A DNA stretch of 64,000 bases from an uncultured Alphaproteobacteria bacterium (GTDB taxonomy: Bacteria; Pseudomonadota; Alphaproteobacteria; GCA-2731375), in contig CATOSZ010000003.1 of NCBI GenBank assembly GCA_951812805.1, positions 1,442,557-1,506,556 on the forward strand, given 5' to 3'. The notes under the pieces were generated by a model, which searched no databases, was not told where the DNA came from, and saw nothing but the letters and a program-made list of their open reading frames with translations. The stretch's first letter is position 1. The number at the start of each line of letters is the position of its first letter. Position numbers and translations under genes: made by a program. Positions 14,730 through 20,888 of the stretch are shown in pieces.

Positions 14730-15902
14730 ATGACCCGCCCGCCGGAACATAGTATCGATCTCGCCGCCTTCTGGGCGGACCCCTATCCCGTGCTGGCGAA
14801 ACTGAGGGCCGAAGCGCCGATCGCCCGCATCCCCGAACTCGGCGCCACGCTGCTGACCCGGCGCGACGACATCATGGCCTCGGAAAAGCGGATCGAGATC
14901 TTCAGCTCCGACCAGCCGGACGGCCTGATGACCCGCCTGATGGGACAGAACCTGATGCGAAAGGACGGCGCCGCACATCAGGTCGAGCGCAAGCTGATCA
15001 TGCCGTCCTTCTCGACGCGCACCGTGGCCGGCACCTGGCGTGCCCGCTTCGAGGCCCGGGCGCGGGACATTCTGGACGCGCTGGCGCCCGCCGGCCGGGC
15101 CGACCTGTTCGATGCCTACGCCCGCCGCCTGTCGGGCGAGGCGCTGCGTGACATCACCGGCCTCACCAACTTAGGCTGGCGCGAGATGGACGCGGTCAGC
15201 CAGGGCATGATCGACGGCATCGCCAACTACGCGGGCGACCCGGGGGTCGAGGCCCGCTGTCACGAGGCGACCGGCACCATCGATGCGGCGATCGACGACA
15301 TCCTGCCGGCGACCACGAAAAGCCCCAATCCGGGCATGCTGTCGGTGCTGGCGGCGGCCGGCATGGCGCCGCCTTCGATCCGCGCCAACATCAAGCTCGC
15401 GATTTCCGGCGGCCAGAACGAGCCGCGCGACGCCATCGCGGGCACGATCTGGGCCCTGCTGACCCACCCGGCGCAACTGGCGTCGGTCCGGGACGGCCGG
15501 GTTTCCTGACTGCAGGCCTTCGAGGAATATGCGCGCTGGATGTCGCCGATCGGCATGTCGCCGCGCCGCATCGCCCGCCCGCACCGGATCGGCGGCGTGG
15601 CGCTGGAGCCGGAAGAGCGGGTGTTCCTGATGTATGGCTCCGCCAACCGCGACGAGGCGCATTTCCCGGCCGCGGACCGCTTCGACATCACGCGCGACGC
15701 CTCCAAGAGCATCGCCTTCGGCGCCGGGCCGCATTTCTGCCCGGGCGCCGCGGCGAGCCGGACGCTGATCGCCGAGGTCGCGCTGCCGCTCGCCTTCGAA
15801 CGCCTGCCCGGGCTCGCCCTCGACGACGCCCGGCCGACCCGTTTCGGCGGCTGGGCCTTCCGCGGCCCGCTCGAACTGCATGCCATCTGGCGCGGCGGTT
15901 GA
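14730..15902 (+). pseudogene. Cytochrome P450 with an in-frame TGA
   Basis: Read through the TGA at 15507-15509, the frame encodes about 390 residues of a soluble bacterial P450. The I-helix segment ISGGQNEPRDAIAG lies before the stop. The K-helix ExxR (EYAR), the haem loop FGAGPHFCPGAAA with its Cys ligand, and the C-terminus all lie after it in the same frame. The flanking context, RDGRVS-stop-LQAFEEYARWMSPIG, fits a Trp codon (TGG) changed to TGA by one transition. Without readthrough the product lacks its haem ligand and cannot be a working P450. The start at 14730 has AAAGG before it. The next gene begins two bases after its stop. Confidence 0.85.
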
Positions 15903-18052: not shown

Positions 18053-18823
18053 CTAATCCGTCGAGTATTCGCCGACGCCTGCCATCTCGTAGCCGCCGTC
18101 GACGAAGAGGATGTGGCCGTTGACGTAGCCGGCCGCCTCGCCGGCCAGGAACACGGCCGCGTCTGCCATTTCCGCCACCGTGCCGTAGCGCCCGGCGGGA
18201 ATATGACGGCGGTAGTTGGTTCGCGTGTTCTCCGTATGCGTCGCGCGGGTGAGCGCGGTGTCGACCGGGCCCGGCCCGATCGCGTTCACCGTGATGCCGG
18301 AGGGTGCGAGGTCGCGCGCCGCCTGGCGAGTGAGGCCGATGACCGCCGCCTTGGAGGTGCCGTAGGCCGTGCGCGCCTCGCCCGCGCGGGAGCCGGCGAT
18401 GGAGGCGACGTTGACAATGCGGCCATAGCCGCGTTTCGCCATCTCCTTCGCCGCGGCCTGGGCGCAATAGAAGCTCGCATGCAGGTTGATCCGCATTACC
18501 CGTTCGAACTCCTCGGCTTCGACCTCGAGGAAATGGCCGAAGCTGGCGGTGCCGGCGACGTTGGCCAGGATGTCGAGGCGGCCGTGACGGGCCACCGTGT
18601 CGGCCACCAGGGCGTCGACCGCCGCGCGCTCGGTGACGTCGAGGGCCGTCGCCTCGGCCACGCCGCCCGCGGCGCGGATCGCCGCCGCCGTCGCCTCGAC
18701 GGCGTCCGCGTTGATATCGGTGAGCGCAAGCCGGGCCCCCTCGGCCGCGAAAGCATGCGCGATGCCCTCGCCGATGCCACCCGCCGCCCCGGTCACGATC
18801 GCCACACGGTCCTGCAAACGCAT
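18053..18823 (-). CDS. SDR family oxidoreductase
   Basis: A 256-residue classical short-chain dehydrogenase. The NAD(P)-binding motif is VTGAAGGIGEGIA (TGxxxGxG) near residue 10, NVAG is near residue 88, and the catalytic Ser, Tyr and Lys sit in NVASIAGSRAGEARTAYGTSKAA. IGPGPVDTALT follows the active site. The acidic DINADAVE after strand 2 suggests NAD rather than NADP. GGGAGGAAAG precedes the ATG. It is the third gene after the selenoprotein and the HAD hydrolase and likely shares their transcript. Its substrate is unknown. Confidence 0.88.
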   Translation of the reverse strand: MRLQDRVAIVTGAAGGIGEGIAHAFAAEGARLALTDINADAVEATAAAIRAAGGVAEATALDVTERAAVDALVADTVARHGRLDILANVAGTASFGHFLEVEAEEFERVMRINLHASFYCAQAAAKEMAKRGYGRIVNVASIAGSRAGEARTAYGTSKAAVIGLTRQAARDLAPSGITVNAIGPGPVDTALTRATHTENTRTNYRRHIPAGRYGTVAEMADAAVFLAGEAAGYVNGHILFVDGGYEMAGVGEYSTD

Positions 18824-18877: not shown

Positions 18878-19543
18878 CTATTCGAGGCCGAGCAGGGCCG
18901 GCAGCGGCGAAAGGTCAGTGAATTCCTCGTAGGGCCCGAAGGCCGGATCTCCGGTCTTGGCAAAGCGGTTGATCCAGACCCGGCGAATGCCCAGCGCATG
19001 GGCCGGCTCGATGTCGTGATAGAAGCCCTGGGCGACATGCAGGATCTCGTCCGTACGGCAGCCGCACCGCTCGAGCAGCAGGCGGAACATCCCGTGATCG
19101 GGCTTGTAGCAGCCGGCATGCGCCGCCAGGACCACCTGGTCGAACGGCACGCCGATCATCGCCAGATTGTCGGCGATGATCGCCTCCTGGCTGTTCGACA
19201 GCACGGCGGTGGAGAACCGCGTGCGGATGGCATTCAATGCCGGCGCGACGTCGGCGAAGGCCGGGGCTTGCCGTACCGCCGCCTCCACGCCGGCCGCATC
19301 CCCCGGCGCCGCTCGCGCGCCCACCGCGGCGAAAGCCCTGGCCACGGCCTCAACCAACACCTCGGACAGGGGCATGAAGCTCGTCGCCTGGATCTCGCGT
19401 TCCGCCGCCTCGAACGCGGCGACGAGGGGGTCGGCCTCGACATCGTGGGCCGCGGCCAGGTCGCGGATCGCCCGCGCCTTGGAACGCGTGTAGTCGACCA
19501 GGGTGTCGTAGCAATCGAAGGTGACGTAGCGGATCGCGGACAC
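18878..19543 (-). CDS. HAD hydrolase, haloacid-dehalogenase type II-like
   Basis: 221 residues. Motif I, VTFDCYDTLVDY, gives the nucleophile Asp near residue 9. Motif II, VLSNSQEAI, holds the phosphate-binding Ser, and motif III, CYKPDHGMF, the Lys near residue 150; a helical cap lies between I and II. The fit is to 2-haloacid dehalogenase-like or phosphatase members. It starts at GTG two bases after the selenoprotein stop, so the two are translationally linked. The substrate could be a phospho- or halo-acid; neither is proven here. Confidence 0.82.
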   Translation of the reverse strand: MSAIRYVTFDCYDTLVDYTRSKARAIRDLAAAHDVEADPLVAAFEAAEREIQATSFMPLSEVLVEAVARAFAAVGARAAPGDAAGVEAAVRQAPAFADVAPALNAIRTRFSTAVLSNSQEAIIADNLAMIGVPFDQVVLAAHAGCYKPDHGMFRLLLERCGCRTDEILHVAQGFYHDIEPAHALGIRRVWINRFAKTGDPAFGPYEEFTDLSPLPALLGLE

Positions 19544-19545
19544 GG

Positions 19546-20748
19546 TCAGAGCCGATGCTCCTGCGAGCGGGGCACCAGAAGACGGAGGCCGAGCTGCTTC
19601 AACCGCTCGTCCGCGTGACCGCTCAATACCGGGTGGAGGTCGAGCATGATGCGCCCGGCCTCGGTTTCACCCCAGAACCAGTCGGCGAGCTGACCCGCGC
19701 CGGCCGCACCCCCCGGCTGGGCGGCGATCGCCTCCAGATAGAAGGCCTTCAGATCCTCCAGCACCGTCTTCAACAGGGCGGCGGGGGCGACACCTTCCAA
19801 CGGGCTTTCCGGCACGCCGCCGTCGAGGAAGGCGGCCATGAAGGCGCCGGCATCCGCCATGGCGAGGCCGCCGGCGCCGACCGTGGTGCGCCCGCGCCGG
19901 GCCACCGCTTCGTCGTACCAGGGGTGCAGGCGGCGGATTTCGGCCGCCAGGCGACCGGCCGGCGTATCGGCGTCCGCCGTACCGGCGAGTTGGATCGGGC
20001 AGGCCCAGCCCTCGACCATGCCGCCGGCCGGCGCCTCGTCGGGGAAGTCGACCAGCACGGGCCCGGACGCCGCCTCCAGCAGGCGGAGGGTGTCGAGCAG
20101 CACGCGGCGCTGGAACGCGGCGTCGTCCGGCGCGCCGAGCGGGCGGCCCAACTCAAACGGAACCCAGAGCGCGCGCGGCGCGCGCATCGTCTCGGTGTGC
20201 AATCGGATCAGGCTCACCTGCGTGGTGGGGACGCCTTCGCTCTCGATCGTATGTGCAAGCCCGCCCACGGCGCGCGTGCAGAAGGGTCAGACCGGAACCA
20301 GCAGGGCGGCGTCGACGCGGTCCTGCTTCAACAGGCCGGCCAGGTGTTCCGCCATCGGCGCCATCGCGTCGGGCGAGGTCGCGCCCATGAAGGAATAGTG
20401 ATGGCGCGCGACGGAACCGATGGCGCCCTCGGCCGCCAACTCGTGCAGGCGGGCCAACGGAAACATGACGTTGTAGTCCTGCTGGAATCCGGTCCGGTCG
20501 AAGTTGGTTGAGATGTGGCTGATGATCAGGTCGGCCGGATCGACGTCGCCGGGAATGATCCGGTAGTCGTCCGCGCCGGCCTCGAAGGGCCGGTCGCCGC
20601 GCACCTGCAGCCCGGCCGTCGAGATCAACGCCACCCGACGTTCCGAGAGGGGCGGGCCCTCGACCCAGGGGTCGCTGTCGGGCGTCGCGCACTCGAGCGT
20701 GGCGATGTGATGGCGCAGGGTTTCGGGCAGATCCTCTAATCGGGCCAT
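19546..20748 (-). CDS. GrdB-like selenoprotein (Sec at residue 154)
   Basis: Read with the TGA at 20287-20289 as selenocysteine, the frame is one 400-residue protein of the glycine/sarcosine/betaine reductase selenoprotein B family (GrdB-like). Residues 88-125 carry ISHISTNFDRTGFQQDYNV and GSVARHHYSFMGAT. The redox site is LLVPV-Sec-PFC, with Cys at 157, where relatives have UxxC or CxxC. Conserved sequence continues without a shift after the TGA (PRALWVPFELGRPLG). The ATG at 20748 has a strong GGAGG six bases before it. A SECIS-like hairpin lies directly downstream of the TGA. It heads an operon with a HAD hydrolase and an SDR. GrdA, GrdC and the selenocysteine machinery are not in the window. 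A plain nonsense mutation is the alternative but less likely. Confidence 0.85.
20254..20280 (-). promoter_or_regulatory. SECIS-like hairpin for selenocysteine insertion
   Basis: Six bases after the UGA, the message can fold into a 27-nt hairpin with 12-nt arms and a GUG loop. Going inward, the pairs are UGCA/UGCA, a mismatch, GC/GC, a G-G mismatch and CGCC/GGCG. The loop begins about 18 nt after the UGA and starts with G. This matches the known bacterial SECIS rules for SelB binding in distance and loop position. The structure was found by eye; no folding energy was computed. Confidence 0.75.
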
Positions 20749-20888
20749 GGCTATCCTCCAGGTCGCGGCCACCGAACGGGTAGCACCGCGCATCGTCGGC
20801 CGCAAGCTCGCGGAGGGCGACGCGATCTGTCAGACTTGCCGGCATAGAGCTTGGAAATCCAGACGAAACATTGAGAAGGACAGGGATA

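What the first reader, a model, noticed from the sequence alone, without database searches (positions are those of the whole stretch)
19546..20748. GrdB-like selenoprotein hidden by an in-frame UGA
Two frames normally called as separate genes form one protein if TGA at 20287-20289 is selenocysteine. The Sec lies at LLVPV-U-PFC, exactly the redox position of the family. Conserved sequence runs on both sides in the same frame. A 27-nt hairpin with 12-nt arms begins six bases after the UGA. The gene shares an operon with a HAD hydrolase and an SDR rather than with glycine-reductase genes, so its role is probably not classical amino-acid reduction.
Basis: partly seen in the sequence, partly recalled or inferred. 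Interest (0 to 1): 0.75.

Follow-up and report, generated by a model that had tools for sequence, protein, structure and literature searches.

The report
Two-domain PrdB-like bacterial selenoprotein gene
A gene that looks broken by a stop codon in fact encodes a selenium-containing protein, one of a widespread but unnamed branch of the proline-reductase selenoprotein family that lacks the usual partner enzyme, so its chemistry is still unknown.

Summary
Confirmed. On the minus strand (20748 to 19546) lies a 400-residue ORF interrupted only by TGA at 20287-20289. All 121 homologous stretches examined, from Proteobacteria, Desulfobacterota, Chloroflexota, Nitrospinota and others, have TGA at exactly this codon; no long form has Cys. 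The genome has selA-selB, selD and tRNA-Sec. The post-UGA hairpin covaries, and its codons are frozen against the genes' own usage (ACG 93% vs 31%, CGC 96% vs 38%). The Sec aligns with Sec151 of PrdB encoded beside prdA. Corrections: it is nearer PrdB (D-proline reductase Sec subunit) than GrdB; the HAD/SDR neighbours are local, not conserved; and the protein has an extra ~165-residue helical C-terminal domain with a third conserved Cys, found only in this branch. Long forms make one clade apart from PrdB (100/100). The pyruvoyl partner (PF09338) is absent from this genome and from 31 of 35 carriers, so classical amino-acid reduction is unlikely. 'PrdB' UxxC selenoproteins have been counted in surveys since 2005, so this is a new variant of a known kind. 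Substrate unknown; a selenolate/Se-S reductase is the likeliest mechanism.

The parts
19546..20748 (-). Selenoprotein gene, 400 aa plus stop (TGA 19546-19548): PrdB-like alpha/beta domain (residues ~33-235) plus helical C-terminal domain (~236-400)
   Evidence: translation; TIGR04483 33-226; AlphaFold2 pLDDT 91.4; 121 homologous stretches
20287..20289 (-). UGA codon for selenocysteine 154
   Evidence: TGA in 121/121 homologues; aligns with Sec151 of PrdB next to prdA
20278..20280 (-). Cys157, second residue of the UxxC motif
   Evidence: Cys in 102/102 long forms
20254..20280 (-). bacterial SECIS hairpin, 12-nt arms, GUG apical loop
   Evidence: fold; covariation and codon freezing
19999..20001 (-). 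Cys250, third conserved cysteine, at the start of the C-terminal extension (CP motif)
   Evidence: Cys in 100/102 long forms
20755..20759 (-). Shine-Dalgarno-like GGAGG, 6 nt before the ATG
   Evidence: sequence; nothing similar before the GTG at 20268 that would restart translation after the UGA
18878..19543 (-). HAD-superfamily hydrolase, nearest to haloacid dehalogenase type II but below its cut-off; starts 2 nt after the selenoprotein stop codon
   Evidence: PF00702, TIGR01428 118.7 vs cut-off 125.4; not found beside homologues
18053..18823 (-). short-chain dehydrogenase/reductase, 54 nt after the HAD gene
   Evidence: PF13561/PF00106

Best explanation
The gene encodes a genuine 400-residue selenoprotein. 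Ribosomes read UGA 20289-20287 as Sec154 with SelB, tRNA-Sec and the hairpin just downstream (inferred from conserved sequence; not measured). The N-terminal domain is a PrdB/GrdB-type selenoprotein subunit; the C-terminal helical domain defines a separate, so far always Sec-containing branch ('long PrdB-like'). Likely mechanism (inference from PrdB chemistry): the selenolate of Sec154 attacks an electrophilic small substrate, Cys157 resolves the adduct to a Se-S bond, and Cys250 or an external dithiol re-reduces it. Because no pyruvoyl partner was found in this genome, the substrate is not activated as in proline or glycine reductase; the added domain may bind or activate it instead. Likelihood by step: selenoprotein 0.98; distinct PrdB-like subfamily 0.95; independence from a pyruvoyl subunit 0.85; selenolate/Se-S reductase chemistry 0.6; use in catabolism of a small organic acid or amine 0.35.
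For: Sec machinery: selB (447 bits) and selA (572 bits) adjacent on C17, selD (286 bits) next to tRNA-Sec on C1. 121/121 TGA. Hairpin pairs kept through double changes between long (CGC-GCC-GUG-GGC) and short (CAG-ACC-GUG-GGU/AGU) genes; 92.9% paired vs 86.2% shuffled (maximum 88.5%) and 18-56% when slid. Codons frozen. PrdB-like genes and selA co-occur in 15 of 17 carriers among 61 relatives; one exception has selB, the other is a 77%-complete MAG. Ndh-SelD fusion gene beside the long form in 11 loci. Sec aligns with Sec of PrdB beside prdA. Long forms one group, 100/100, branch 2.29. PF09338 absent in 31/35 carriers including this genome, search proven by hits in the other 4. PrdB mechanism: Sec attack, selenoether, Se-S resolved by Cys (PMC3091704).
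Against: No expression, mass or selenium-labelling data. The hairpin alone is not unusually stable. Function is inferred: no solved structure resembles the fold (no hit at E<=0.001), the extra domain matches no Pfam or NCBIfam model, and neighbours differ between lineages. No coordinates were at hand to test whether Cys250 can reach Sec154.
Confidence: 0.85

Rival explanations
1. It is an ordinary D-proline reductase PrdB or glycine/betaine reductase GrdB subunit working with a pyruvoyl-bearing proprotein.
For: PF07355 over its cut-off and TIGR04483 at 105 bits; Sec at the homologous site.
Against: Far below equivalog cut-offs (300 and above); no PF09338 protein in the genome or in 31/35 carriers; separate clade and extra domain.
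Confidence: 0.05
2. It is a general thiol peroxidase or disulfide reductase (antioxidant) rather than an enzyme of carbon metabolism: Sec154 takes up a peroxide or disulfide, Cys157/Cys250 resolve it, thioredoxin or glutathione reduces it.
For: UxxC plus a third conserved Cys; conserved Sec preference; a cited paper title reports peroxidase activity of GrdB (reference list of PMC3091704); no fixed metabolic operon.
Against: In Rhodospirillaceae relatives the gene follows a CoA-transferase III gene and can precede a 2-hydroxyacid dehydrogenase gene, more like metabolism; several paralogues per genome suggest several substrates.
Confidence: 0.25
3. UGA is a real stop: a pseudogene, or two separate genes.
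For: Standard gene callers would split it; a P450 gene in the same window has an in-frame TGA that looks like a nonsense change.
Against: Same TGA in 121/121 homologues across phyla; strong conservation right across it; no Shine-Dalgarno before a restart.
Confidence: 0.01
4. UGA is read as Trp or Cys by an altered code or a suppressor.
For: None beyond the open frame.
Against: TGA is an ordinary stop elsewhere in the window, including at the end of this gene; tRNA-Sec, selA, selB and selD are present; known PrdB has Sec at the same site.
Confidence: 0.01

Closest known systems
D-proline reductase subunit PrdB (TIGR04483)
   Same: Homologous over residues 33-226; Sec at the same position (Sec154 vs Sec151/152), UxxC motif, hairpin after the UGA
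   Different: 105 bits vs cut-off 300; U-P-F-C rather than U-G-T-C; extra C-terminal domain; no PrdA partner; separate clade
Glycine/betaine/sarcosine reductase selenoprotein B (GrdB/GrdF/GrdH, PF07355, TIGR01918)
   Same: Shares the C-terminal part of PF07355 up to the Sec
   Different: Sec at 154 of 400 instead of ~350 of 436; no second CxxC; no GrdE partner; below TIGR01918 cut-off
'Proline reductase PrdB' selenoproteins of marine metagenomes (Sargasso Sea, GOS; PMC1088965, PMC2398784)
   Same: UxxC, PF07355-related, common in marine bacteria; probably includes this branch (inference)
   Different: Counted there as proline reductase; neither the passages read from those surveys nor the 2026 inventory (PMC13188914) lists a two-domain subfamily
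Short PrdB-like paralogues in the same genomes (UPVCHQTV and UPLDHQTV)
   Same: Same fold region, same Sec site, same type of hairpin
   Different: No C-terminal domain; some lack the second Cys; Cys versions exist (L131, L138)

Membership tests
Bacterial selenoprotein | in-frame UGA conserved with homologous protein on both sides | tested here: met
   121/121 TGA; identities 59%/68%
Bacterial selenoprotein | SelA, SelB, SelD and tRNA-Sec in the genome | tested here: met
Bacterial selenoprotein | bSECIS: loop 3-9 nt, G in first two loop positions, 16-37 nt from UGA | tested here: met
Bacterial selenoprotein | selenium incorporated in the protein | not testable with these tools
   needs mass spectrometry or 75Se
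D-proline reductase PrdB | TIGR04483 above equivalog cut-off 300 | tested here: not met
   105 bits
D-proline reductase PrdB | pyruvoyl proprotein PrdA (PF09338) in the genome | tested here: not met
   no match in own genome; query proven by 4 other genomes
D-proline reductase PrdB | Sec at the homologous position with UxxC | tested here: met
D-proline reductase PrdB | groups with PrdB in a tree | tested here: not met
   long forms one group apart from PrdB and short forms, 100/100
GrdB (glycine/betaine/sarcosine reductase selenoprotein B) | PF07355 gathering score 22 | tested here: met
   29.9 bits, residues 77-151 only
GrdB (glycine/betaine/sarcosine reductase selenoprotein B) | TIGR01918 subfamily cut-off 65.45 | tested here: not met
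   47.9 bits
GrdB (glycine/betaine/sarcosine reductase selenoprotein B) | UxxCxxC motif | tested here: not met
   UPFCTRAVG

The most novel reading that the evidence does not exclude
The long PrdB-like proteins are a new, Sec-dependent class of single-chain reductive enzymes in which the added helical domain (with Cys250) replaces the pyruvoyl partner, letting marine and soil bacteria cleave a carbon-heteroatom bond of a substrate not known for Stickland enzymes.
Probability: 0.25. Interest if true: 0.75.

Novelty: new variant of a known kind. Interest (0 to 1): 0.45.

Why it matters
A whole branch of selenoproteins across many phyla has no name and no family model, and is probably mis-called as two fragments or labelled 'proline reductase'. 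Its occurrence without the pyruvoyl subunit suggests that the PrdB/GrdB selenoprotein fold can act outside Stickland chemistry, and it is found in a cultured species (Reyranella aquatilis KCTC 52223, L118), so the question can be put to the bench.

Tried and rejected
Pfam and NCBIfam on 14 members: no model for the C-terminal domain. Foldseek against PDB: nothing at E<=0.001, so no fold-based function. Sequence search of PDB: only two designed proteins over 28 residues, rejected as chance. Rfam at gathering threshold: no match in the window. Literature searches for 'PrdB-like' or the 'selenoprotein B family' in alphaproteobacteria found nothing specific. HAD as a dehalogenase clue: below the type II cut-off (118.7 vs 125.4) and not conserved beside homologues; not pursued.

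Full report
OBSERVATION. The gene lies on the minus strand of the window. Reading 20748 to 19549 with TGA as Sec gives 400 residues with one internal TGA (20289-20287) in the context LLVPV-U-PFC and a TGA stop at 19548-19546. The start ATG has GGAGG six bases upstream, whereas the GTG at 20268, the first start that would give the downstream half on its own, has no such site. By folding energy alone it is not remarkable in this GC-rich DNA (z -0.95 to -1.5).

IS THE UGA SELENOCYSTEINE? The genome (7.4 Mb, 98.5% complete) holds selB and selA side by side on contig C17, and a tRNA-Sec immediately upstream of an oxidoreductase/SelD fusion gene on C1. The genome has seven PrdB-like matches from six loci; every match that spans the site has one TGA. 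Among 61 relatives, 17 carry PrdB-like genes and 18 carry selA, with 15 in common; of the two exceptions one has selB and the other is a 77%-complete MAG. A scan of 84,980 species genomes, with patterns placed upstream of the Sec and so not biased towards it, gave 80 named long homologues. Over all loci held, 121 of 121 homologous stretches have TGA at this codon, 109 of them long matches (a few loci are held twice, so distinct genes are fewer). No long form with Cys was seen; two short relatives with Cys were (L131; L138 of Roseomonas), both with the GUG loop lost.

The hairpin is under selection beyond the protein. In 100 distinct long genes the Thr codon is ACG in 93% inside the hairpin against 31% elsewhere in the same genes, and the Arg codon CGC in 96% against 38% (p about 1e-33 or less), even in genes with 42% GC at third positions. 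Long genes (CGC GCC GTG GGC) and short paralogues (CAG ACC GTG GGT/AGT) keep the stem by changes on both sides; 92.9% of pair cells are standard pairs against 86.2% in shuffles (maximum 88.5% of 1000) and 18-56% when the partner is slid by 1-3 bases. Related rows inflate such counts, so this is support, not a probability. The hairpin meets the published bSECIS rules (PMC13188914).

WHAT FAMILY? Residues 33-226 match PrdB (TIGR04483, 105 bits, cut-off 300) better than any GrdB model; PF07355 passes its cut-off over residues 77-151 only. Aligned with PrdB of Terrisporobacter petrolearius, encoded next to prdA, and of Peptoclostridium acidaminophilum, the Sec codons coincide. In a 114-protein tree (N-terminal 240 residues) all 103 long forms fall on one side of a 100/100-supported branch of length 2.29, apart from PrdB and the short paralogues (long branches make the finer order among the outgroups unsure). 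The C-terminal extension of about 165 residues matches no Pfam or NCBIfam model, is predicted all-helical with high confidence (pLDDT 91.4) and, in 61 relatives, occurs only as part of these proteins or fragments of them. Invariant or nearly so in 102 long forms are Sec154, Cys157 (102/102) and Cys250 (100/102).

HOW IT MAY WORK. In D-proline reductase the substrate is held on a pyruvoyl group of PrdA; the selenolate of PrdB is proposed to attack the alpha carbon, and a Cys of PrdB to cleave the selenoether to a Se-S bond that PrdC reduces (PMC3091704). Here PF09338, the family of the pyruvoyl proproteins GrdE/PrdA, has no match in the genome, in 14 relatives or in 16 of 20 further carriers; the search works, since 4 carriers (with 11 genes) do match. 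So the partner is not needed for this branch. The likeliest reading is that Sec154 attacks an electrophilic substrate or disulfide, Cys157 resolves it, and Cys250 or an outside thiol reduces the Se-S bond. This is inference; the substrate is not known. A general antioxidant role is the main rival.

NEIGHBOURHOOD. In the window the gene is followed after 2 nt by a HAD hydrolase and after a further 54 nt by an SDR. No other locus has that HAD gene nearby; SDRs occur near a few homologues, but SDRs are common. In many relatives a CoA-transferase III gene lies just upstream (16 loci, many closely related) and in L022 a D-2-hydroxyacid dehydrogenase follows; in 11 loci the neighbour is the SelD fusion gene. 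Context therefore ties the family to selenium but not to one pathway.

KNOWN OR NEW. UxxC 'proline reductase PrdB' selenoproteins were the third most frequent known family in the Sargasso Sea survey and common in GOS (PMC1088965; PMC2398784), and 'proline reductase' was listed for Anaeromyxobacter and Geobacter (PMC1794560); a Geobacter long form is among the hits here (L082), so the branch has probably been counted before. The 2006 census gave Alphaproteobacteria only one selenoprotein family. The 2026 inventory of 119 families/subfamilies lists only GrdB and D-proline reductase of this kind. Naming it a proline reductase is not supported here. It is a new variant of a known kind.

LIMITS. 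Only 80 of 370 candidate loci were kept, so a rare Cys long form is not excluded. No wet data.

Noticed in passing
window 14745-15902 (+), TGA at 15507-15509: A cytochrome P450 gene is interrupted by one in-frame TGA; the best solved homologue (6g71_A) has Trp there, so this looks like a nonsense change or sequence error, not selenocysteine.
   Followed up: yes
L045 10741-12995 (G000:C8 ~328-332 kb): A third long PrdB-like copy of the same genome is split by an element with istA/istB-like genes (IS21 type by resemblance; 508 and 251 aa ORFs).
   Followed up: partly
L093, L109, L116, L075: Two long PrdB-like selenoprotein genes stand in tandem, of different subgroups in at least L093/L109.
   Followed up: partly
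L030, L041, L043: Short PrdB-like Sec proteins with UPLD instead of UPxC, so no resolving Cys in the motif; relatives carry up to 10 PrdB-like matches per genome.
   Followed up: partly
L050 5478-8005 (G000:C1): tRNA-Sec lies directly upstream of a pyridine-nucleotide oxidoreductase/SelD fusion gene; the same fusion type stands next to long PrdB-like genes in 11 other loci.
   Followed up: partly
L029 (G048:C4:226389-227573): One long homologue has an extra in-frame TAG at a conserved Trp (277), probably a nonsense change or error.
   Followed up: no
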